Source of the DNA: Bartonella sp. HY038
GTDB lineage: Bacteria > Pseudomonadota > Alphaproteobacteria > Rhizobiales > Rhizobiaceae
Direction of reading: 5' to 3'
Length of the DNA stretch: 64,000 nucleotides
NCBI RefSeq assembly: GCF_014117425.1
Contig: NZ_CP059725.1
Location: forward strand, 1,736,001 to 1,800,000
Of this stretch, positions 19,108 through 41,954 are shown one piece after another. The position numbers and the translations under genes are program-made. The stretch's first letter is position 1. Every line of letters begins with the position of its first letter. The notes below the pieces were generated by a model that was not told the DNA's origin, did no database searches, and worked only from the letters and a program-made list of their open reading frames with translations.

Positions 19108-19197
19108 GGTGAGGTGGCCGAGCGGCTGAAGGCGCACGCCTGGAAAGTGTGTATACGGGGAACCGTATCGAGGGTTCGAATCCCTCTCTCACCGCCA
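19108..19197 (+). tRNA. tRNA-Ser (anticodon GGA), prophage attachment site
   Basis: Class II tRNA, 90 nt including encoded CCA (19195-19197). Acceptor GGTGAGG with TCTCACC (one G-T pair), anticodon loop CTGGAAA, variable arm TATACGGGGAACCGTATC, T-loop GGTTCGAATCC. The integrase gene starts shortly after the 3' end in the same direction, so this tRNA is the likely attB/attL of the element; the tRNA itself is intact. Confidence 0.97.
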
Positions 19198-19255
19198 TTG
19201 AATTTTTGCAACTAATTGTTTTTATTGAACTTTTTCAATTGTAAAATGATTACTA

Positions 19256-19353
19256 TTGCAAAAACGCCAAATCTATCACACAATATAGCATACAAACTGT
19301 CACACAAATCGTTGGGGCTATGCATTATTGTGGTTGCAAAAACATCAAATCTA
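19256..19353. repeat. Short direct repeats in front of the integrase (possible arm-type sites)
   Basis: A 20-base direct repeat with two mismatches occurs at 19256-19275 and 19334-19353 (TTGCAAAAAC..CAAATCTA). Between them the octamer TCACACAA occurs at 19276-19283 and 19300-19307. This is typical of integrase/excisionase arm-site regions of attL. Confidence 0.4.
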
Positions 19354-20679
19354 GATCGTTACCTCATGCTACGCAATGGCAATTACGTCTATAAAAGACG
19401 TGTGCCCACACCACTTATTGTACTAGATAAACGCAGCCCTATTATTCAAATTTCACTTCGCACAAGTGATTTGATTATTGCTCGCACGAAACGCGATTTG
19501 CATGAAAAAGCTGACAATGATTTATGGGCAGCATTGATGCTAGGCACGAACAGCGATGCTGCGATGGAACGCTATAAGGCGGCAATGAAACAGGTTGAAG
19601 CATTTGGTTTTGCATTTAAAACCGCCGGCGATCTCGCCAAGGCATCATTAGATGAAATTATCAGCCGCTTTTCTGTTATCACTGACAAAACCTTGCCGCC
19701 GCCTCTACAACAAAGCTTGCTTGGTGCGGTAAAAGCGCCAAACACACTACTAAGCGATGCCATCAAGCTTTATTTTGAAGATATAATCCCCCATACGCTA
19801 ACGGGCAAAAGCCAACATCAACGTGAACGTTGGATACAAGGGCGAAGCGCAACTTTGCGTTTATTAAGCGATGCCATTGGTGACAAAGATATAGATGACA
19901 TCACACGCCAAGACGGTTTAGCCTTTTATAAAAGCTTGGGAAAATCAATCTTAGATTCAAGCGGTGCCGCCACCCATTCAGCAGCATGGGGCAATCGCCA
20001 AATTAGCAATGCCCGCGTTTTCTTAAACTCCTATTTTGCGCATATAGGTAAAATTGACTATAATAATCCATTGTCTGGCCTATCTTTTAAAGAAGTCAAT
20101 AAAACACGCCCTCCTTTTTCAACCAACTGGATTAAAGACAAGCTTTATCAACCAGGTGCTTTAGCAAAGCTTAATGACGAAGCACGGCATGTGGTTTTTA
20201 TTTTGGCTGATACGGGTGCGCGCCTTGGTGAAATTTGCAATCTTGGCACAGAAAATATTCACCTAAATGGCGAAGTACCCTTTATTGATATTGCACCGCG
20301 TATAGACCCTGCAGACCCACGCGAAATTAAAACAAGCTCTAGCGTTAGGCGCATTCCACTTATTGGCGTGGCATTAGAGGCTATAAAACTACATCGCAAC
20401 GGCTTTACCCGCTATCGCGATAAGGAAACCACCCTATCGAATACTTTAAATAAATTTTTTAGGGAAAATGGGCTATTTGAAAAAGACAATCAGGTGATCT
20501 ATTCCCTTAGACATGCCTTTGAAGATAGAATGAAAGAAGCCGATGTCGATCATGAATTACGTATGGCATTGATGGGCCACGCTAACAACCGCCCACGTTA
20601 TGGATCTGGCGGCGGTTTATTGTGGCAGTGGGAGCAACTTAATCGGATTGCTTTGCCGTTTGATTTTTCAATTTTTTAA
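19330..20679 (+). CDS. int: Tyrosine-type site-specific integrase
   Basis: About 449 residues from GTG 19330 (GGGG 12 bases upstream), or 437 from ATG 19366; upstream codons overlap the repeat-rich att region and are unlikely to be translated. The N-terminal part (LMLRNGNYVYKRRVP) is the DUF6538-type start of phage integrases. The catalytic set is present: Arg in TGARLGEIC, the RxxH-type box in YSLRHAFEDRM, LMGH and the tyrosine in RPRYG near 20598. It sits next to tRNA-Ser(GGA) and marks the left end of the prophage remnant. Its 3' end overlaps the opposing gene by 41 bases. Confidence 0.9.
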   Translation: MVAKTSNLDRYLMLRNGNYVYKRRVPTPLIVLDKRSPIIQISLRTSDLIIARTKRDLHEKADNDLWAALMLGTNSDAAMERYKAAMKQVEAFGFAFKTAGDLAKASLDEIISRFSVITDKTLPPPLQQSLLGAVKAPNTLLSDAIKLYFEDIIPHTLTGKSQHQRERWIQGRSATLRLLSDAIGDKDIDDITRQDGLAFYKSLGKSILDSSGAATHSAAWGNRQISNARVFLNSYFAHIGKIDYNNPLSGLSFKEVNKTRPPFSTNWIKDKLYQPGALAKLNDEARHVVFILADTGARLGEICNLGTENIHLNGEVPFIDIAPRIDPADPREIKTSSSVRRIPLIGVALEAIKLHRNGFTRYRDKETTLSNTLNKFFRENGLFEKDNQVIYSLRHAFEDRMKEADVDHELRMALMGHANNRPRYGSGGGLLWQWEQLNRIALPFDFSIF

Positions 20680-20904: not shown

Positions 20905-21296
20905 CTACTGTCTATTAAGCTTGTCGATAAATTGCGCTTGATATTCTTGTGATGAAAGAAGCCGCACAGTGCCACCCGTTTTGGCGGCTTTTTTATAAGC
21001 TTTTGCTAGACTTAAATATAAGTCGGCTTGTACGACAAGGCTGCCTTCAAATTGCGCAGGATTAGCAATAAACTCAACTGCTTTTCCTTGGCTATCGAAA
21101 CAACATAAACTCCTTTTTCTAACCCCTGCCCTTGCGTTGGCGCTTCTTTTATAAAGCCGCATTGCTCGGTAAAAATATTAAGGGCAAGGTTAAGCGCTTT
21201 TAACCATTCGTCATGGTCAAAAACATTGGCAAAACCTGCCTTTAAGCTTTCAACACCTGCTTTAATAGCTTTTTGGCGTGCTTCATCTTGGGTCAT
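20905..21296 (-). pseudogene. Frameshifted prophage gene, paralogue of the next gene
   Basis: Begins MTQDEARQKAIKAGVESLKAG (ATG 21296). The frame is broken near 21098-21100: up to ...LEKGVYVV it reads in one frame, and the sensible continuation FDSQGKAVEFIANPAQFEG...FIDKLNRQ is in another. Restoring one base in the A/T run there (GTTGTTTCG) gives a smooth protein of about 130 residues. It shares its 5' leader and first 16 codons with the gene at 21380-21718. Either a true decayed gene or a sequencing indel. Confidence 0.65.
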
Positions 21297-21355
21297 TGTA
21301 AAAACCTTATTAAAAGACAATAAAACTCCACTGCAAACGCTGCCGCGCTGCATGA
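21247..21355. repeat. Direct repeat, copy A (109 bp)
   Basis: Covers the leader and first codons of the frameshifted gene. It matches 21669-21777 with eight mismatches by hand alignment and no gaps. It marks a tandem duplication within the prophage. Confidence 0.75.
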
Positions 21356-21379: not shown

Positions 21380-21718
21380 TTATTTTATAGGATAAAAGTT
21401 GGGAGCCATTTCATCCATTAGCTTACCTATATGATAAGCATCACGAATAACTTCCGTAAACTCAACAATATCAGAGTTGCCATTGCTTAAAAGCCCGGTA
21501 AGCGCGTGGCCGCTAAAATAGTCGCAACGAGTAAATGCTGATATTATTGGTCTTTCCGCCTCATTTAAAAATGGTAAAATGCTTTGCTTAATATATGTAT
21601 CAATCACCGTTTCAAATGCTTGTCTAAGGTCAGCCTCACTAAACTCTGCATCAGTGTAGCCTCGCAATTTTTCAACGCCTGCATTAATGGCTTTTTGTCG
21701 TGCTTCATCTTGGGTCAT
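21380..21718 (-). CDS. Small prophage protein, paralogue of the frameshifted neighbour
   Basis: 112 residues from ATG 21718, the same position in the repeat as the start of the downstream paralogue. Starts MTQDEARQKAINAGVEKLRG; the rest (LRQAFETVIDTYIKQSILPF, DIVEFTEVIRDAYHIGKL) is helical and acidic. After the shared N-terminus the two proteins diverge. No family recognised. It belongs to the leftward operon from the promoter at 22591-22619. Confidence 0.6.
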   Translation of the reverse strand: MTQDEARQKAINAGVEKLRGYTDAEFSEADLRQAFETVIDTYIKQSILPFLNEAERPIISAFTRCDYFSGHALTGLLSNGNSDIVEFTEVIRDAYHIGKLMDEMAPNFYPIK

Positions 21719-21777
21719 TGTAAAAACCTTGTTAAAAGACAATAGAACTCCACTGCAAACGCTGCCGCGTTGCATGA
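21669..21777. repeat. Direct repeat, copy B (109 bp)
   Basis: Partner of 21247-21355. It includes the leader and N-terminal codons of the gene starting at 21718. Confidence 0.75.
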
Positions 21778-22759: not shown

Positions 22760-23827
22760 GTGACTAACCACTTTATAAAGAGTGACGAATGTTTAGCAAT
22801 TAATGTTATAGACTTGTTCTGTGGAGCTGGCGGATTAACGCATGGACTAGAACAAGCAGGACTTAATGTTAAAGTAGGAGTAGATATTGATCCTTCATGC
22901 AAAACACCACTTGAAGCTAACAACAACGCAGCATTTATATGCCGAGACATACGAACTATTACTAGATCTGAATTGGTTGAATGGTTCGGAACAAATGGTA
23001 TTAATGTTTTAGCCGGCTGTGCACCATGTCAGCCATTTTCTACTTATTCCAACACACGTAAATCTTTAGATGAGCGATGGTCTTTGCTAAAAGAATTCGA
23101 ACGCTTAGTACTTGCAACGAAACCAAACGTGTTAACCATGGAAAATGTCCCAGGTTTAGCACGTCAGCCAGTTTGGAAGGAATTTGTAAATAAATTAAAA
23201 GACAATAATTACTGCGTTAGCTGGTCAATAGTTGATTGCATCAAATTTGGTATCCCGCAAACTCGACGACGCTTAGTGTTACTTGCATCAAGTCTCGGTC
23301 CAATTGAACTCAATCAACCTAAAGATACAGCTATTAAGACCGTTAGAGATACTATATCGCTCCTACCTAAAATACCAGCAGGCAATACAAGTGATAAAAT
23401 AGACTTACATATATCAGCCAAACTATCACCTTTAAATCTCAAAAGAATAAAAGCATCAAAGCCGGGTGGCACATGGCGTGATTGGCCAATTGAAATACAA
23501 GCAAAATGCCATCAAAAAATTACGGGGAAAACATACCCATCCGTTTACGGAAGAATGGAGTGGGATAAACCATCACCAACATTAACAACACAATGCTTTG
23601 GCTACGGCAACGGACGCTTCGGTCACCCTGAACAAGATCGCGCCATCTCTTTACGAGAAGCGTCAATGTTACAATCATTTCCTCCCAATTATATATTTAA
23701 TAGTTTGACCAATAAATTAAGCTTCAATAAAATCGGCATGCTCATAGGAAACGCTGTCCCTCCCCTACTTGCGCTACACATAGGGAAAACAATCAAAACG
23801 CATATAGAAAAATATTACACAACTTAA
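22760..23827 (+). CDS. DNA (cytosine-5-)-methyltransferase
   Basis: 355 residues, GTG start behind AAGGA. All key C5-methylase motifs are intact: I DLFCGAGGLTHGLEQAG (18-34), IV GCAPCQPF with the catalytic C90, VI ENVPG (128-132), VIII QTRRR (167-171), a short target-recognition region about 230-265, IX SLREASMLQSFP, and X IGNAVPP. It should methylate cytosine in a short DNA site that cannot be predicted. No classical restriction endonuclease gene adjoins it. It is convergent, 12 bases apart, with the HEPN/DUF262 pair, and lies between the prophage leftward operon and the repressor, a usual place for cargo. Confidence 0.93.
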   Translation: MTNHFIKSDECLAINVIDLFCGAGGLTHGLEQAGLNVKVGVDIDPSCKTPLEANNNAAFICRDIRTITRSELVEWFGTNGINVLAGCAPCQPFSTYSNTRKSLDERWSLLKEFERLVLATKPNVLTMENVPGLARQPVWKEFVNKLKDNNYCVSWSIVDCIKFGIPQTRRRLVLLASSLGPIELNQPKDTAIKTVRDTISLLPKIPAGNTSDKIDLHISAKLSPLNLKRIKASKPGGTWRDWPIEIQAKCHQKITGKTYPSVYGRMEWDKPSPTLTTQCFGYGNGRFGHPEQDRAISLREASMLQSFPPNYIFNSLTNKLSFNKIGMLIGNAVPPLLALHIGKTIKTHIEKYYTT

Positions 23828-23839
23828 ACAATACAAATT

Positions 23840-24580
23840 TTAAGGATCCTCTTTCAAATATTTTTTTGAATCGATATACTGACCAAAGTTCGAAACCACA
23901 CTTTCAAGATACTTAAACACTACCCAACAAAAGGAAACTAAATCACGATAAACTACGCTGGCTGCACACTGCGCAAAAGAGATATCACCATGTGCAAGTT
24001 TGTTTCTTAGATCAACGACCATACCTAAAACACCTTTATCATCCTTAATATGTCGGTTAATAGCCCGCAACGTGCGACGAGGAATTCGTAACTCTAATCC
24101 TATCTTTTCACAATAAGACTTAATCTCTGTATGTCTCCATTTACCTCCGCCACCTTTAGAAATTTCCCACTCAGTAATATCACTACCGTTAGAAACTATA
24201 TCAAAGAGATTTCTAACTTTTTTTGCTCGTGCTTTTTCATTAATTTCTTTAGTCACACCTGCTGTATCGTTTATCCACATGTCTAGCAGCTTTGGAGATA
24301 AATTAATCGGAAACTTGGCATGGTGCTTACAGGCCAATAGCAACTCTGCTATACATTGATTAACTGTTCCTTCAACTAAATTATACAACATTAAATAAAT
24401 GCTTGAATACAAAATTTTCTGTTGCACCGCATTAATTTGATAACTAGGTGGCGTTGATAATTTAGCCGACAATATTGCTCTTCCGCTACTTGCTATACAT
24501 TTATCAATATTTTTTAAAAGCTTTAAAACATTTAATATTTCTGATTTTCTTTCTCTGTAATTTTTCATCAACTCAGTCAT
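23840..24580 (-). CDS. HEPN-domain predicted RNase (MAE_28990/MAE_18760-like)
   Basis: 246 residues. The start ATG 24580 overlaps the stop of the DUF262 gene by 8 bases and has AGG seven bases upstream; TTG 24610 is a worse option. Mostly helical; the C-terminal part contains the HEPN catalytic motif RxxxxH as DLRNKLAHGD (R192, H197). The overall pattern (SSIYLMLYNLVEGTVNQCI early, RNKLAHG late) fits the MAE_28990-type HEPN family, which comparative studies place with restriction and DUF262 genes. Expected to cut RNA when triggered. Translational coupling to DUF262 implies a complex. Confidence 0.75.
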   Translation of the reverse strand: MTELMKNYRERKSEILNVLKLLKNIDKCIASSGRAILSAKLSTPPSYQINAVQQKILYSSIYLMLYNLVEGTVNQCIAELLLACKHHAKFPINLSPKLLDMWINDTAGVTKEINEKARAKKVRNLFDIVSNGSDITEWEISKGGGGKWRHTEIKSYCEKIGLELRIPRRTLRAINRHIKDDKGVLGMVVDLRNKLAHGDISFAQCAASVVYRDLVSFCWVVFKYLESVVSNFGQYIDSKKYLKEDP

Positions 24581-25652
24581 TGGCAACCTGCAATAAACAA
24601 GATGCGACAAAATTGATACGATTTTCTATTTTGCTTTTTACGTTTGCCGAACCAGAAGAGACCAAATCAATAAACTCATTACAGTTAAGCCAACTAACAT
24701 CAATAGCTGTTGATTTTAAAAGTAATGGATTTTTTCTTATTGCCAAATCAACTCCTATTGCAATTGCTTCAAATCTAACTTGGGGGGTCGCTTTTGCTTT
24801 TGTTGATTTCGTAAAACCATTTGGGAAATGAAGATCAACAAACTTCAACATATTTTTAAAGCGCTCTTCATAGTCTTTTAAAAGCATTTGGGATTTTTGC
24901 ACTTGCTGATTCATTTTTTTTACATATGAGAATAAAAAATTTTTAGGACTATCTTTGTAAGTATCTAAGCCGTCACCATATGCAAAAAAACGGGTAACCA
25001 TATCATCATGCGTGCGTAAGTTTTTCGATACCTGTGATATCGGTGCAAGTTTAGATAGAAGATCCTCCTGAGCTAACTTTTCAATCAAGTTTTGGAACTC
25101 TCCACGCAATGCTCCACGCCTAACTTCAACAGGTTTAGCTGTAAGACTACCAGTATTAATTCTTTCGAACATATCAAATCTAACAGCCTCATCTGCATTT
25201 TCACCTAAAACAGCACCTCTAATTGGGATATTTAAGATTTTTAATTGCCTTGATCTTGGTAGATCTTCAAACTTTGTGCCTATCAGCGAAGGTATTTTAT
25301 CAAGATTAACCAATGTCAAATTATTAGTTACATATTGCTCAATAGTGCGTAGACGTTGAGAACCATCAATGACCTCCAACTCCCCTTTAGGTGTCTCCCA
25401 AAAGAATAGAAACGGCACCGGAAGCCCCATAATTAAAGATTCAAGAAATCGAGATTTCCGATCATCATCCCAAGTAAAATTTCGCTGATAATCAGGAATA
25501 TAAAACTCTTGTCTTTCCATTTTTAACGAAATAATTTCAAGATTATATTCGGTCATAAAAAAGTTCACTTCCTTTTTTATAGCCAGAATCTCCTTTTCAG
25601 CTTGCTCGACTTGCTGCACTTTAGTAATTGTTGAGGCAATCATGATTTTCAT
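24573..25652 (-). CDS. DUF262 (ParB-like/GmrS-N type) NTPase protein
   Basis: 359 residues, ATG 25652 with GGAG just upstream. The DUF262 signatures are IPDYQRNFTW (52-61), VIDGSQRLRTI (94-104, the DGQQR-type nucleotide site) and FERINTGS (162-169). In type IV restriction enzymes of the GmrSD, BrxU and SspE group this domain hydrolyses NTPs and reads DNA modification, but there it is fused to a DUF1524 HNH nuclease; here no DUF1524 motif is visible in the C-terminal 190 residues. The HEPN protein made from the same mRNA may replace that nuclease as effector (inference). Confidence 0.85.
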   Translation of the reverse strand: MKIMIASTITKVQQVEQAEKEILAIKKEVNFFMTEYNLEIISLKMERQEFYIPDYQRNFTWDDDRKSRFLESLIMGLPVPFLFFWETPKGELEVIDGSQRLRTIEQYVTNNLTLVNLDKIPSLIGTKFEDLPRSRQLKILNIPIRGAVLGENADEAVRFDMFERINTGSLTAKPVEVRRGALRGEFQNLIEKLAQEDLLSKLAPISQVSKNLRTHDDMVTRFFAYGDGLDTYKDSPKNFLFSYVKKMNQQVQKSQMLLKDYEERFKNMLKFVDLHFPNGFTKSTKAKATPQVRFEAIAIGVDLAIRKNPLLLKSTAIDVSWLNCNEFIDLVSSGSANVKSKIENRINFVASCLLQVAND

Positions 25653-25698: not shown

Positions 25699-26421
25699 TT
25701 AAACTCCTAACAAATCATTCAAACTTAAAATGCGATGAATAGCAATTACGTTTTCCTCGTCAAAATTAAGAATATTCTGCGGATTTAGCTTTTCAATTTC
25801 AATTTTTGAACCGCTGCGCTTATGCAATATGCCAATAATTGCCTCTTGATAGTCTGCTTCCCCGCGTTTGAATTGCACCACAACTGAATCACCAATGCGT
25901 GCTGGACGGTATGGGTGGGCAATAATGAGATCGCCTGCATAATAGCGCGGCTCCATTGAATCACCCTCAACATAAACGGCATAAGCATCTTTAACAGCCT
26001 CCACCCCCGGAGGACGGCGGACATATTCAATAATATTGGCTTCAAGAGACAAAACACCATTTGTGTGGCTTCCCGCTGCTGTACCAAGCACCGGCAAATC
26101 CTTATGCATGTTAGTTTGGCTTGGAACTGGCATATTTACAGGCGTAACTTCATGCACTGTTTTTGTTGCTTTTCTATTAGTAGCAGCACTTTCCTTGGGT
26201 GAGACATTCACCACTTCCCCAACGCCATGCATTAACCACTCAGGTGAAGTTTCAAGCGCTGTTGCAAGCTTCGCCAATGTCTTAACTGTTGGTGAAGACT
26301 GTTGACGAAACAAGGTGCGCAAATAATCGCGCGTGAGCCCCGCCTTTTTTGAAGCTCCTTCAGGACTAAGGTCAAGCGCTGCAAGTCTTTGATTTATACG
26401 GTCAAAAATTGATTCTGTCAT
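25699..26421 (-). CDS. Prophage repressor, XRE helix-turn-helix plus S24/LexA-like peptidase domain
   Basis: 240 residues. HTH at about 8-65 (SPEGASKKAGLTRDYLRTLF, SSPTVKTLAKLATAL). A linker follows, then the S24 domain: cleavage site A116-G117 in TAAGSHTNG, and nucleophile S155 in VEGDSMEP. The general-base Lys expected in the strand QEAIIGIL looks replaced by G197, so RecA-stimulated self-cleavage may be lost. It keeps the early promoters at 22591 and 26475 shut, judging from their shared operator. Divergent from the cro-like gene. Confidence 0.9.
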   Translation of the reverse strand: MTESIFDRINQRLAALDLSPEGASKKAGLTRDYLRTLFRQQSSPTVKTLAKLATALETSPEWLMHGVGEVVNVSPKESAATNRKATKTVHEVTPVNMPVPSQTNMHKDLPVLGTAAGSHTNGVLSLEANIIEYVRRPPGVEAVKDAYAVYVEGDSMEPRYYAGDLIIAHPYRPARIGDSVVVQFKRGEADYQEAIIGILHKRSGSKIEIEKLNPQNILNFDEENVIAIHRILSLNDLLGV

Positions 26422-27017: not shown

Positions 27018-27046
27018 GCTTTGCTTAAATTAAGGGGTTGTTTAAA

Positions 27047-27535
27047 ATGGCAATGATTAACGAGGCTTGGTTTCACCGCTTAAAGGCGGCGCAGCGCGAT
27101 TTAATCAAGACATGCGGCGGCATTGAGCGCTGCGTTGAGATTACCTCACTTTCTAAAAGTCAGGTTGGCCGTTGGAACAATGCCACCGACCCCGATTTAA
27201 TGCCCACCAATGCAATTTATATGCTGGAAAATGAATGCGGCTTGCCACTTGTGACCACTGCTCTTGCTGCGCTTACCGGCTATCGTCTTATTGCCCCGGA
27301 TGAAGAGGGTAAAAGCATGGGCTCGGTTTTAGCCAAGTTTTCAGACCTTGTGGCAGCATCGGGTGATGTGATGGCAACAGGCAGCCGCGCCTTTGCGGAT
27401 GGTAAGCTAACCCCTGCCGAGGCTGCCGACATTGACCGCGCATGCAGTGCCATGGAAATTAAAATGCTTGAGCTGCGCCGGCAATTGTCACGCGCCAAGG
27501 TTTCCACACTGCATGTGGTTGGTGGAGATTACTAA
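27047..27535 (+). CDS. Prophage regulatory protein with N-terminal helix-turn-helix
   Basis: 162 residues from ATG 27047, with AAGGGG 10 bases upstream. The N-terminal 45 residues (RDLIKTCGGIERCVEITSLS, KSQVGRWNNATDPDLMP) look like a CII/XRE-type DNA-binding domain; ENECGLPLVTTALAALTGY follows as in phage regulatory proteins. The C-terminal helix is amphipathic (EAADIDRACSAMEIKMLELR). First gene of the rightward operon; its stop overlaps the next start by one base. Function as an early activator is inferred. Confidence 0.7.
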   Translation: MAMINEAWFHRLKAAQRDLIKTCGGIERCVEITSLSKSQVGRWNNATDPDLMPTNAIYMLENECGLPLVTTALAALTGYRLIAPDEEGKSMGSVLAKFSDLVAASGDVMATGSRAFADGKLTPAEAADIDRACSAMEIKMLELRRQLSRAKVSTLHVVGGDY

Positions 27536-28867: not shown

Positions 28868-30199
28868 TCAAAGAAAAGAGGAGGAGGATTGGCTCAGAGG
28901 AATAATTCCATTGTTTTCGCAAAACTTAATTTTCCCAATGCCTATCATATCACTGTCATCATAATAACAATCAGTAAACAGATGGATCACATCAGAAGGG
29001 TGAGAACCATAACTAAAGTAGGATTGGTCTGTAACATTTACAAAAGTGCAATCCAAAAAATGAGACTGTCCAAGGGACTTGGCCCATGCAGTCGAAGAAC
29101 CGTCTTTAATTTTTTTAGTCTTAAAGCGAATCGCGCTGTCTATTTTACAGTTAAGGAAGGTACAAGTTTCGATGTAAAAGGAAGGAAAGTCATTAAAATC
29201 AATATCTTGAAAGCTAAAATTTTTATAATTTATTTCCTCAAGATTTGGCCAATATGTATCCTCTTTTTGCTTGGAATATCCTGTAAGTTCCACACCATAA
29301 ACAGATGTTTTTATATCATTCACGCTGGAATATTTCTGAAGAATATCCATCGCATAAAAAAACCATGTGTAACTGACATCATGAATATCAATTCCTTCAT
29401 TATTTTCTCTGCTAAAAGCAATAATGGAGGATTTAATTATATCAATCGCTTGTTTAACAAAACTACTTTTGCCGCCAATAATATTATCCAAGCAAGCAAG
29501 ACCAGCCATTTTTTCAGCTTCTGTCGTGTCTTTACCCAGAAATTTTGTACCATCAACCAGCAATTTTGCAATGTTATTGTTTTGCGTTTCTATGAGGTTT
29601 TCGGTCGCCAACTCAAATTGTTTATTCGCCAATTCAAATTGACGGTTACCCAAAATAATTTGATCTGCCGCGATTTTTGCTTGTTTGCTTTGTGCTTTTT
29701 CTTGGAGAGAGTGCAGCGCGCCGCGCCACACCGCAATCATAAGTGTACACAGAGCCAAAATGGCAATACAGACTTTAACAGCACTATCATATTTGAGTTC
29801 ACTCAGCTTAAAACCGAAATGATACAAAGCCAATTCCGAAAGCGTGTTATAGTAGTGAAGCACAGTATAAAGTACTATCAAATAGCACAAAACAATAAAT
29901 ACGCCAAAGCTAAATGCGCGAAAACTACCAAGCCCCTCTTTATTTTTGGTCTTGAACCTTTGCAGCTTTGGATAAACATATCTGCTTATGTGATAACCTG
30001 CAAAAATATAAACTCCTGCAAGCATGACGATCAGAAAAAAGCCCCATGGACCAATACTCGTTGCCCAACCGTAAAACGGCAACAATATACTAATGTAAAA
30101 AATACCACTTCCGATAAGTATCGCCATGAAGGTAGCAAATCCACTAAGTATAGCCTTTCTATTTTGCTTCGTGGCTTTAAGTATTTCGTTATCTCTCAT
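28868..30199 (-). CDS. Membrane-anchored pentapeptide-repeat-like protein (prophage cargo)
   Basis: 443 residues from ATG 30199 behind GAGGGAAA. Four hydrophobic helices lie within about 1-170 (AILSGFATFMAILIGSGIFYI as first, cut here for length), then a coiled coil (QEKAQSKQAKIAADQIILG, QFELANKQFELATENL). The C-terminal region has degenerate pentapeptide/beta-helix text: NYKNFSFQDIDFNDF, CTFLNCKID, HFLDCTFVNV. Opposite to the flanking phage genes and more A/T rich, so an inserted cargo gene. Pentapeptide membrane proteins of this plan occur near defence genes; function here unknown. Confidence 0.65.
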   Translation of the reverse strand: MRDNEILKATKQNRKAILSGFATFMAILIGSGIFYISILLPFYGWATSIGPWGFFLIVMLAGVYIFAGYHISRYVYPKLQRFKTKNKEGLGSFRAFSFGVFIVLCYLIVLYTVLHYYNTLSELALYHFGFKLSELKYDSAVKVCIAILALCTLMIAVWRGALHSLQEKAQSKQAKIAADQIILGNRQFELANKQFELATENLIETQNNNIAKLLVDGTKFLGKDTTEAEKMAGLACLDNIIGGKSSFVKQAIDIIKSSIIAFSRENNEGIDIHDVSYTWFFYAMDILQKYSSVNDIKTSVYGVELTGYSKQKEDTYWPNLEEINYKNFSFQDIDFNDFPSFYIETCTFLNCKIDSAIRFKTKKIKDGSSTAWAKSLGQSHFLDCTFVNVTDQSYFSYGSHPSDVIHLFTDCYYDDSDMIGIGKIKFCENNGIIPLSQSSSSFL

Positions 30200-30237
30200 G
30201 CTTTTCCCTCGCGTTTCACACAAGGGAGATAGTTAGC

Positions 30238-30621
30238 ATGAGTGGTTCAATAGTCAATCTTTTTATTGATGAAGCGGGTAGCATAAAAATTGCCAATTGT
30301 GTGGCTGATCTTGGCTTGCCAACAGTTTCCCACAATGGTGAATATGCTGGCCCATGCCCGCAATGTGGTGGCAAGGATCGCTTTTCTTACAATATCCGCA
30401 AAGATGTTTGGAATTGCCGTGGCTGCTCCAAAGGTGGGCATAGTGCTTTATCACTTACTGCCCATGTTTTGGGGCTTGATTTGCATGTGCGGGCGGATTT
30501 AATTAAAGCTGCTGAAACCGTGCTTGGCCGCGCTGCGCCGAAAAATGAAGTTAGCGAGGAAGAGCGTTTAAAAGCCAAATGGCTTTTTGAGCAAAGGAAA
30601 AAAAGGCAAAGCACCGCTTGA
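30238..30621 (+). pseudogene. Truncated phage/plasmid primase, zinc-ribbon N-terminal fragment
   Basis: 127 residues. Residues 25-75 hold the primase zinc ribbon CPQCGGKDRFSYN...WNCRGCSKGG with ligands C40, C43, C60, C63. After EEERLKAKWLFEQRKKRQ it stops; the Toprim and helicase parts expected in a 600-800 residue primase/helicase are absent. An A7 run at 30599-30605 separates it from the leucine-rich-repeat frame that follows. Probably the right-hand break point of the prophage. Confidence 0.7.
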
Positions 30622-40028: not shown

Positions 40029-41954
40029 ATGGAAAACCAAGCCCATAACGCAGAAGTTGCAGCCTATATTAAAGATTATCTCAACAATGAAAACTTCGCA
40101 CAATTTGCCGTATTACTAACTGGCAAATGGGGCAGCGGCAAAACCCATTTTATTTTTGATTTAAAAAAGCAATATGAAAATTTAACACCATATGAAAAAT
40201 ATTTAGGCAATAAAGAATTTAATTGGATTTACGTAAGCCTTAATGGCATAGAAACAGTTGAAGAAATTGAAAAACGTATCATTCTTGCTGCGTATAGTTG
40301 GCTTAACAATAAAGCTTTAAATTTGGGACAAAGCTTTTTGAGCAGCATCGTTGCTTCACCGCAAATCTACGGCGTTGGCTTTGATACTAAAAAATTTGCA
40401 AAAGATTTAAAAGAATTATTGCCGAAAGTTAAAAACACCGCTTTTATTTTTGATGATATTGAGCGCTGCCGCCTGCCCTTATCCAACCTCTTTGGCTACA
40501 TTAATAATTTTATTGAGCATGATAGACTAAAAGTTATTTTAGTTACCGATGAAGACAAGCTCAAAGAATATTACGCTAAGGAAATAACTGCCCCACAACA
40601 AGATCGCAGCTTTTCGAGTTACGAGCAAGTTAAAGAAAAACTTGTTGGGCAAACTTTGGAAATAAAGCCAGATATTACAAGCGCTATAAATAAATTCATA
40701 ATCAATTTAAAAGCTGATGATATTCGTAAAATTATCTTAAACAATCAAAATGATATTTTAGAAATTTTCAAACAGTCAAAAGCAAAGAATCTACGCAGTT
40801 TAAAAACAGTGTTATTTAATTTTAAGAGGTTATTTGATTATTTAAAGACTATAAAAACTGCGTCAACATACGACCACCATATCTTTGATGACCAAATAAA
40901 AGATGTACTATTAAAAATTTCAGCCATTACTTTTGCTCATCTGAATGGCGACATTAGCGATACGAATGAAATTTATCTCGGCACGAGCGCTCAAATGAAA
41001 AATGTAATCGATAGCCTCTCAAACACGAGCAAAAATACTGCTTCCGCAGCCTCGAAACGCCATTATCCCAATTTTTCTTTTTCTGAGGTACACAGATCAC
41101 TTAATTGGTATCAAAACCCAATTAACCTATTCGAACTTGGTAATTTTGTAAAAAGAGGCATTTTACCTTCGGAAAAATCGATAATCACATCTTTTAAAGA
41201 AGACTTTCAGACACGCAAGGCAAAAAAAGAAGCTGAGGATGTTTCGATTTTATGGATAAAATTAGTTAGGTGGCAATTTAATGACCCGAATAAACTTGAT
41301 GAAAACCTACAACCTGTAATGAAGGCATTAAGAAATTTTAAATTCACAAGAATGGGAGATATCTTACAAGTTGCAAGTCAAATCAATCTATTGATCGAAA
41401 TGAATTACAACCCTCTGCCTAATGGAGAGAGTTTGGAGGAATATTTTACTAAGTATTTAACTTCGCTAAACGCTCAAAATATACCTGCTAGCTTTGATGA
41501 ATTAAACGACTTGAGATTTAATGGATATAGTGGATATGAATATTATTTAGAAGGCGCTCAGAGTCTAGTGGCTAAAATTAAAGCTAACACTACAAAAAGA
41601 GCTATAAAAACTTTAAGAAACAGCCGAAGACTTATCGATTTTATATCAAAAGATGATTTCAAAAATATGAGTGAGGAACAGTATATTTCATTTCCGCTAA
41701 TGAATTATGTTGATGTAAAAGACTTTGCCAGACTAATTAATATAGCGGGCGAAATACATGACACGCCCCCTTTGGCTATTAGAGCACTAATAAACCGCTA
41801 CCAAAACGCAGCCAACTTGAAACAAGAAGAACAAAGCTGGTTAAAACAACTAGAAGACGAATGTCAAAAACAAATAGCAATGCTGCCCGAGCCATTTAAA
41901 ACCCATAGACAACTTCTTTTAGATGTGTATTTTAAAAATTTAATTTTGAATTAG
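40029..41954 (+). CDS. KAP-family P-loop NTPase
   Basis: 641 residues. Walker A GKWGSGKTH (32-40) and the KAP-type Walker B FIFDDIERC (140-148); then VILVTDEDKL (sensor region). The rest is helical without a recognised domain, and no membrane helices are visible, unlike many KAP proteins. It has its own terminator-bounded place between rpsI and lrgB. The ribosome site is weak (GAG, A/T-rich leader). KAP NTPases appear in prophages and defence loci; here it is a lone insertion of low G+C, suggesting a one-gene defence or signalling element (inference). Confidence 0.82.
   Translation: MENQAHNAEVAAYIKDYLNNENFAQFAVLLTGKWGSGKTHFIFDLKKQYENLTPYEKYLGNKEFNWIYVSLNGIETVEEIEKRIILAAYSWLNNKALNLGQSFLSSIVASPQIYGVGFDTKKFAKDLKELLPKVKNTAFIFDDIERCRLPLSNLFGYINNFIEHDRLKVILVTDEDKLKEYYAKEITAPQQDRSFSSYEQVKEKLVGQTLEIKPDITSAINKFIINLKADDIRKIILNNQNDILEIFKQSKAKNLRSLKTVLFNFKRLFDYLKTIKTASTYDHHIFDDQIKDVLLKISAITFAHLNGDISDTNEIYLGTSAQMKNVIDSLSNTSKNTASAASKRHYPNFSFSEVHRSLNWYQNPINLFELGNFVKRGILPSEKSIITSFKEDFQTRKAKKEAEDVSILWIKLVRWQFNDPNKLDENLQPVMKALRNFKFTRMGDILQVASQINLLIEMNYNPLPNGESLEEYFTKYLTSLNAQNIPASFDELNDLRFNGYSGYEYYLEGAQSLVAKIKANTTKRAIKTLRNSRRLIDFISKDDFKNMSEEQYISFPLMNYVDVKDFARLINIAGEIHDTPPLAIRALINRYQNAANLKQEEQSWLKQLEDECQKQIAMLPEPFKTHRQLLLDVYFKNLILN

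What the first reader, a model, noticed from the sequence alone, without database searches (positions are those of the whole stretch)
22760..25652. Candidate defence system: C5-cytosine methyltransferase with a coupled DUF262-HEPN pair
An intact C5-methylase (motifs I, IV, VI, VIII-X) faces, 12 bases apart, a two-gene unit in which DUF262 (IPDYQRNFTW, DGSQR) overlaps a HEPN protein (RNKLAH) by 8 bases. DUF262 domains in GmrSD, BrxU and SspE hydrolyse NTP and respond to DNA modification but carry a DUF1524 nuclease; none is seen here. HEPN proteins with RxxxxH are RNases. My inference is a system where the methylase marks self DNA, DUF262 senses unmodified or foreign DNA, and HEPN cuts RNA to abort infection. 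It sits in a prophage immunity region, a usual spot for superinfection-exclusion cargo.
Basis: partly seen in the sequence, partly recalled or inferred. Interest (0 to 1): 0.88.

Follow-up and report, generated by a model that had tools for sequence, protein, structure and literature searches.

The report
Methylase-linked DUF262–HEPN phage defence cassette
A phage remnant in a bacterial chromosome carries a compact, widely shared three-gene unit that probably marks the cell's own DNA and shuts the cell down by cutting RNA when unmarked DNA comes in; the gene set was noted in print in 2013, but I found no report that it has been tested.

Summary
A C5-methyltransferase (22760-23827 +) lies 12 bases from a convergent HEPN gene (23840-24580 -) that overlaps a DUF262 gene (24573-25652 -) by 8 bases. 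DUF262 has no DUF1524: no Pfam match, no motif in 93 aligned sequences, all-helical C-terminus in a confident model. The unit is real: in 104 clusters of relatives HEPN follows DUF262 in 102, and a C5-methylase is adjacent in 94, in three arrangements. Started from HEPN, 11 of 11 genomes have DUF262 beside it, but only 3 the C5-methylase; one has an N6-methylase. Vsr lies against 16 of 104 units, suggesting real 5mC. The methylase's wider clade also pairs with helicases or HSP90-like ATPases, so DUF262-HEPN seems to fill a 'restriction' slot. The neighbourhood was listed in 2013; PD-T4-2, a related DUF262+HEPN system, blocks T4. I file it as a new member of a known kind. Sensing of unmethylated DNA followed by RNA cleavage is inference (about 0.5); a restriction-like system whose only evident effector is an RNase would be notable. 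The 'prophage' looks like a remnant beside tRNA-Ser.

The parts
22760..23827 (+). C5-cytosine DNA methyltransferase, 355 aa, GTG start
   Evidence: PF00145 4.3e-56; PADLOC MTase_II 8.6e-90, DrmMII 2.7e-79; C90, E128 and N129 in 88 of 88 triples; the only PF00145 match at E 0.001 in the host genome
23840..24580 (-). HEPN protein (MAE_28990 type), 246 aa, predicted RNase effector
   Evidence: PF18737 6.5e-16; R192 and H197 in 88 of 88 and invariant in 94 aligned sequences; AlphaFold2 pLDDT 93.4, mostly helical
24573..25652 (-). DUF262 (GmrSD_N) protein, 359 aa, predicted NTP-using DNA sensor; N-terminal alpha/beta, C-terminal all-helical, no DUF1524
   Evidence: PF03235 1.4e-23; PADLOC NsnA 1.5e-51, PD-T4-2_A 4.1e-29; P53 Y55 Q56 R57 W61 D96 G97 Q99 R100 in 88 of 88; model pLDDT 92.8, no strand after residue 149
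24573..24580 (-). 8-base overlap of the DUF262 stop and the HEPN start
   Evidence: read from the sequence
25699..26421 (-). CI-like S24 repressor, 46 bases upstream of DUF262 on the same strand (probable lysogenic operon, inferred)
   Evidence: PF00717 1.2e-9, PF01381 4.5e-8, phrog_4 6.6e-26; such a repressor within 400 bp upstream, same strand, in 6 of 104 clusters, the window included
19216..20679 (+). tyrosine integrase of the element
   Evidence: phrog_1 1.3e-27, PF00589 5.4e-7
19108..19197 (+). tRNA-Ser(GGA), probable attachment site (inferred from position)
   Evidence: ARAGORN; no second copy of 16 bases or more of this stretch found in the window
27038..27535 (+). CII-like activator
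   Evidence: phrog_101 1.5e-22

Best explanation
It is an anti-phage cassette with restriction-modification logic. Step 1 (domain and residues shown, activity inferred): the C5-methylase puts 5mC on a target sequence in host DNA. Step 2 (inferred): the DUF262 protein, a ParB/Srx-like NTP-binding protein with a helical C-terminal half and no recognised nuclease domain, binds DNA and reads the state of that target; unmethylated entering DNA triggers NTP-dependent activation. Step 3 (residues shown, activity inferred): the coupled HEPN protein, held inactive by DUF262, cuts RNA through its RxxxxH site and stops the cell, so the infection aborts. The DUF262-HEPN pair is probably transcribed with the prophage repressor, so the lysogen is guarded. 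The pair is the core; the methylase is an exchangeable module, absent from some relatives and replaced by an N6-adenine methylase in at least one.
For: Linkage: HEPN directly downstream in 102 of 104 clusters and C5-methylase adjacent in 94 of 104; HEPN-first, 11 of 11 with DUF262. Linkage survives rearrangement: at least 9 changes of methylase position or orientation on a quick DUF262 tree. Co-inheritance in 88 triples: distance correlation DUF262-HEPN 0.90, DUF262-methylase 0.53, HEPN-methylase 0.57, each with 0 of 999 permutations as high. Signature residues invariant. Vsr in 16 of 104 clusters, all within 217 bp of the unit and none farther out in the held flanks (four checked by Pfam), consistent with real 5mC. 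Methylase-first: 49 of 94 with both DUF262 and HEPN, 45 with neither; of ten large neighbours of the latter given to Pfam, two are SNF2 helicases, five HATPase_c_3 proteins, one a NERD-helicase, two unmatched, so DUF262-HEPN appears to fill the restriction slot; at least 10 partner changes on the methylase tree, 5 forced by well-supported branches. N6_Mtase convergent 3 bp from HEPN in L300. Precedents: PD-T4-2 and SspE.
Against: No activity has been tested, as far as I found. C5-methylase is found in only 3 of 11 HEPN-first loci (one of the 11 is cut by its contig end), and 5 of 104 clusters lack it with 2.3 kb or more held on both sides of DUF262, so the pair persists without it. In BrxU the DUF262 protein acts on modified DNA, and in SspE the modification triggers the NTPase (PMC10952713 passages), so the sign of the signal may be opposite. 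The HEPN model has no significant match among solved structures (best Foldseek E 0.23), so HEPN rests on profile match and RxxxxH. DUF262-methylase co-inheritance is looser than DUF262-HEPN. Direct tblastn with the HEPN finds far fewer records than with DUF262 (9 against 26 phage records, 4 against 254 plasmids): HEPN diverges fast (L003, L009 and L010 have it but are missed), and many of those DUF262s probably belong to other systems.
Confidence: 0.5

Rival explanations
1. DNA restriction with an RNase guard: DUF262, which the 2013 survey calls a ParB nuclease, itself cuts unmethylated DNA; HEPN is a PrrC-like second line released when restriction is blocked.
For: PMC3710099 passages propose this for HEPN domains in R-M operons; the PADLOC REase_II model matches the window DUF262 weakly (5.9e-08) and 3 of 9 DUF262s at 1e-10; a Vibrio phage record labels its DUF262-like gene 'Type_II_REases'.
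Against: No known nuclease domain: Pfam finds only GmrSD_N, 0 of 93 sequences have a [DE]H[IVLF][YWFVI]P motif in the C-terminal half, no strands after residue 149. In SspE the DUF262 part is the NTPase and DUF1524 the nuclease (passages).
Confidence: 0.2
2. Modification-licensed or type IV-like sensing: DUF262-HEPN is activated by modified DNA (phage hypermodification, or, as in SspE, needs the host mark), and the methylase provides the licence rather than protection.
For: BrxU acts on modified cytosine and the SspE NTPase is triggered by phosphorothioate (passages); PD-T4-2, a DUF262+HEPN system, blocks T4 (passages; that T4 DNA carries glucosylated hydroxymethylcytosine is recalled); methylase-less pairs exist.
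Against: A methylase kept beside a system that attacks 5mC would be suicidal unless licensing holds; other members of the methylase clade sit beside helicase or ATPase genes in loci that look like R-M (inference).
Confidence: 0.2
3. Mainly an addiction (toxin-antitoxin) module that stabilises the mobile element: HEPN toxin held by DUF262 and by methylation, with defence secondary.
For: Carried on plasmids, phages and viral contigs; overlapping genes; HEPN proteins occur in TA pairs (PMC3710099 passages).
Against: TA alone does not explain a methylase, Vsr and an NTPase-type sensor related to PD-T4-2_A and NsnA.
Confidence: 0.07
4. Inactive relic in a decaying prophage.
For: The element looks like a remnant (short primase-like gene 30238-30618, no structural genes seen); the window DUF262 has a long end branch, 0.99 against a median of 0.36.
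Against: All three frames are open; the window copy departs at 0 of 16 (HEPN), 7 of 72 (DUF262; 18 of 93 rows have as many) and 5 of 119 (methylase; 19 of 88) conserved columns.
Confidence: 0.03

Closest known systems
MAE_28990 HEPN + ParB nuclease + DNA methylase operons (Anantharaman et al. 2013, PMC3710099, Table 1; passages read)
   Same: Same HEPN family by Pfam PF18737, same kind of neighbours
   Different: In the passages I read this is one table row, without experiment, counts, Vsr or partner exchange
PD-T4-2 (Vassallo et al. 2022, PMC9519451; PMC10952713; passages read)
   Same: DUF262 + HEPN; the window DUF262 matches PD-T4-2_A at 4.1e-29; all 9 DUF262s of A1 match it
   Different: The HEPN differs: PD-T4-2_B (168 positions) was found in 0 of 10 records or genomes that carry this cassette, and 0 of 9 HEPNs match any PADLOC model
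PADLOC NsnA (by recall a Menshen subunit) and DUF262+DUF3696 operons (L306, L308)
   Same: The best PADLOC match of the DUF262, nearly full length, 1.5e-51
   Different: In L306 and L308 the partners are DUF3696 and a third protein, not HEPN and methylase
SspABCD-SspE and GmrSD/BrxU
   Same: DUF262 with DGxQR; in SspE a modification partner with a DUF262 effector
   Different: No DUF1524 here; the mark is predicted 5mC, not phosphorothioate
DISARM (DrmMII) and other R-M-like loci using the same methylase clade
   Same: The methylase matches DrmMII at 2.7e-79
   Different: The neighbours examined in the window are not DISARM genes; the effector is DUF262-HEPN

Membership tests
MAE_28990-HEPN / ParB / methylase neighbourhood (2013) | HEPN matches PF18737 above its cut-off | tested here: met
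   59.6 bits against 26.8
MAE_28990-HEPN / ParB / methylase neighbourhood (2013) | adjacent ParB-like (DUF262) and DNA methylase genes | tested here: met
PD-T4-2 | A subunit (DUF262) matches PD-T4-2_A | tested here: met
   4.1e-29, but NsnA scores higher
PD-T4-2 | B subunit matches PD-T4-2_B | tested here: not met
   no PADLOC match for the window HEPN up to E 0.1 or for 9 HEPNs at 0.01; 0 of 10 cassette-bearing records or genomes
GmrSD / BrxU type IV restriction | DUF1524 (HNH) nuclease | tested here: not met
Menshen (NsnABC, name recalled) | NsnA-type DUF262 | tested here: met
   1.5e-51
Menshen (NsnABC, name recalled) | NsnB/NsnC partners beside it | tested here: not met
   the window's neighbours are HEPN, methylase and repressor; NsnB was sought in 5 cassette-bearing records, found in 1, about 18 kb from its cassette, and the model also matches in 14 of 14 control genomes; NsnC not sought
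Type II restriction-modification | DNA methyltransferase | tested here: met
   PF00145
Type II restriction-modification | cognate DNA endonuclease of the same specificity | tested here: inconclusive
   no known DNA-nuclease domain found in the three proteins at E 0.1; specificity unknown
Anti-phage defence system | protection in a plating assay | not testable with these tools
   needs the bench

The most novel reading that the evidence does not exclude
A restriction-modification-like immune system whose restriction arm does not cut DNA: absence of the host 5mC mark is read by an NTP-using DUF262 sensor and converted into RNA cleavage by HEPN. Methylases (C5, and in one case N6) and effectors are exchanged as modules, several unrelated effectors using one methylase clade and perhaps one shared target sequence.
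Probability: 0.4. Interest if true: 0.8.

Novelty: new member of a known kind. Interest (0 to 1): 0.55.

Why it matters
If the mechanism holds, self/non-self marking of DNA is coupled to an RNA-cutting suicide effector without DNA cleavage, and DUF262 is a general swappable sensor (HEPN, DUF3696 and DUF1524 partners). Relatives occur in many phyla by the record titles, and in E. coli P2-like prophages, yet none of the 9 HEPNs tested matches a PADLOC 2.0 model, so surveys that rely on it would record only parts. The host here has a single C5-methylase gene, which makes a clean test of the mark possible.

Tried and rejected
DUF1524 hidden in the DUF262 C-terminus: rejected. The string DLHFP (273-277) resembles the DUF1524 motif, but position 275 is H in only 14 of 93 aligned sequences, and the model has no strands there.

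PD-T4-2 membership: rejected for the HEPN subunit. Conserved target recognition as a hallmark of the cassette: rejected; residues 226-296 of the methylase are more conserved than the catalytic part, but equally so in 24 dereplicated methylases without the cassette (the borders of the region are mine). A shared target for the clade stays possible.

Consensus scans for promoters and terminators: no more sites than in shuffles. Attachment repeat: none of 16 bases or more. HEPN model against the PDB: nothing significant. Fold search of the DUF262 model was never accepted. Paper searches for the Nsn names showed nothing relevant among the rows listed (20 of 55, 10 of 98, and none found).

From 173 records I dropped L001, L171, L172 and L004 (duplicate of L091) before counting. 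For residue counts and correlations 88 of 104 clusters were used (HEPN present, methylase E<1e-100). Structure alignments used 93 and 94 rows. Neighbours of methylases without the cassette: 18 of 45 loci listed, ten proteins given to Pfam.
Full report
Observation. Pfam gives DNA_methylase 4.3e-56, HEPN_MAE_28990 6.5e-16 (RiboL-PSP HEPN 1.5e-6) and GmrSD_N 1.4e-23, with no DUF1524 at E 0.1. A CI-like S24 repressor on the same strand ends 46 bases before the DUF262 start, so the pair is probably expressed with the repressor (inference).

Surroundings. tRNA-Ser(GGA) 19108-19197 lies next to an integrase, followed by small genes, the cassette, the repressor, a CII-like activator and a short primase-like gene. 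Reading the translations beyond I saw chromosomal genes and no phage structural genes. In the one other genome of the genus that I searched, the flanking DNA matches up to 19198 and again from 32269, with the right-hand part inverted. So this looks like a phage-derived element or remnant of roughly 13 kb. No attachment repeat was found.

Is the unit real? 169 loci (80 genome, 80 viral, 8 named phage and plasmid loci, the window) fall into 104 clusters at 80% DUF262 identity. HEPN is immediately downstream on the same strand in 102 of 104; the other two are cut by the locus end. A C5-methylase is adjacent in 94 of 104: 40 convergent downstream, 32 downstream same strand, 22 upstream same strand. 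Of the ten without, five (L045, L054, L076, L114, L165) are cut soon after DUF262 and five (L056, L084, L090, L136, L163) have at least 2.3 kb on both sides of it and no C5-methylase. The position or orientation of the methylase changed at least 9 times on a quick DUF262 tree while linkage held. Examples: Moraxella phage Mcat24, Rhodococcus, Roseomonas, Phaeobacter and Klebsiella plasmids, and three E. coli P2-like prophages, between the portal and replication genes. In near mode 7 of 5,426 E. coli genomes match the P2_4B2 DUF262-HEPN DNA, 3 over at least 80% of it.

A less biased test. Searches started from HEPN (61, 385 and 398 genomes, overlapping sets) gave 11 distinct genomes besides the window's. 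DUF262 is directly upstream in 11 of 11. The C5-methylase is present in 3 of 11, two with Vsr. One more, L300, has an N6-adenine methylase convergent 3 bases from HEPN; one (L295) is cut off by its contig end. So the core is the DUF262-HEPN pair; the methylase is a frequent but exchangeable addition. Plain tblastn with the window HEPN finds only 9 phage and 4 plasmid records against 26 and 254 for DUF262: HEPN diverges fast, and many of those DUF262s probably belong to other systems.

Conservation. In 88 complete triples HEPN R192 and H197 are 88 of 88 and N193 87 of 88; DUF262 P53, Y55, Q56, R57, W61, D96, G97, Q99 and R100 are 88 of 88; methylase C90, E128 and N129 are 88 of 88. Pairwise identities correlate 0.90 (DUF262-HEPN), 0.53 (DUF262-methylase) and 0.57 (HEPN-methylase), none reached in 999 permutations. 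The window copy is not an outlier in conserved columns, though its DUF262 has a long end branch, next to the Azospirillum unit L091.

Structure. HEPN: pLDDT 93.4, pTM 0.90, helical except for short strands; no significant PDB match. DUF262: pLDDT 92.8, pTM 0.79, an alpha/beta N-terminal part and only helices after residue 149, which leaves no place for the beta-beta-alpha fold of DUF1524. No [DE]H[IVLF][YWFVI]P motif occurs in the C-terminal half of 93 aligned sequences.

The methylase and Vsr. In a clustering of neighbours within 3 kb, Vsr is the most frequent extra family (four members confirmed as PF03852): 16 of 104 clusters, all within 217 bp of the unit and none farther away in the held flanks. 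Vsr repairs T:G mismatches from 5mC deamination (recalled), so these methylases probably do make 5mC. Started from the methylase, 49 of 94 loci carry both DUF262 and HEPN and 45 carry neither (80 viral loci, the best of 218, and 14 genome loci with about 1.5 kb of flank). Of ten large neighbours of the latter given to Pfam, two are SNF2 helicases, five HATPase_c_3 proteins, one a NERD-helicase, and two had no match. On the methylase tree the partner changed at least 10 times, 5 forced by well-supported branches. DUF262-HEPN therefore seems to occupy the place where other loci have a restriction-type effector. This is the main argument for R-M-like logic; it is an inference. In the host genome this is the only PF00145 match.

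Known relatives. The neighbourhood is named in Table 1 of PMC3710099 (passages). PD-T4-2 contains DUF262 and a HEPN (PMC10952713 passages) and protects against T4 in its native strain and in K-12 (PMC9519451 passages). Our DUF262 matches PD-T4-2_A and, better, NsnA; our HEPN matches no PADLOC model. DUF262 relatives also sit with DUF3696 (L306, L308) or with HEPN and no methylase next to it (L305, L307). SspE is the nearest precedent for a modification partner with a DUF262 effector (PMC12707154 passages). In my searches of the held library (two searches listed 20 of 56 and 12 of 23 papers) I saw no experimental test of the three-gene unit; the library lacks most subscription-journal papers and holds no bioRxiv collection.

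Verdict. Real, conserved, very probably defence; a new member of a kind noted in 2013, not a new category. The open and interesting step is whether the missing mark triggers RNA cleavage. I put the full mechanism at about 0.5 and interest at 0.55.

Noticed in passing
window 21012-21353 and 21380-21775 (-): Two neighbouring ORFs begin with nearly the same 30 residues (MQRGSVCSGVLLSFNKVFTMTQDEARQKAI) and then differ: a tandem duplication with diverged ends.
   Followed up: no
window 30238-30618 (+): 127-aa primase-like protein (phrog_510, 3.9e-13) matching positions 31-119 of a 667-position profile; likely a truncated phage primase near the end of the element.
   Followed up: partly
window 28868-30223 (-): 451-aa ORF with hydrophobic N-terminal stretches between phage genes, with a 466-aa ORF on the opposite strand over the same stretch; no PHROGs match for the - strand frame.
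   Followed up: partly
window 40029-41954 (+): 641-aa protein with a P-loop (GKWGSGKT) that reads like a KAP-type NTPase (recalled), possibly another defence gene.
   Followed up: no
L300:4678-5931: N6-adenine methylase (PF02384, 8.9e-10) in place of the C5-methylase, convergent and 3 bases from the HEPN frame.
   Followed up: partly
L090, L136, L163: DUF262-HEPN pairs without C5-methylase have other neighbours: a putAbiC protein, a YhcG/DUF1016 nuclease, and a second short DUF262 ORF.
   Followed up: partly
L003 (Peduovirus P24B2), gp41-gp42: Next to the pair the phage record annotates two short genes (one 'DNA methyltransferase'), while an E. coli prophage with the same DUF262-HEPN DNA (L179) has one cytosine methyltransferase gene there.
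   Followed up: no
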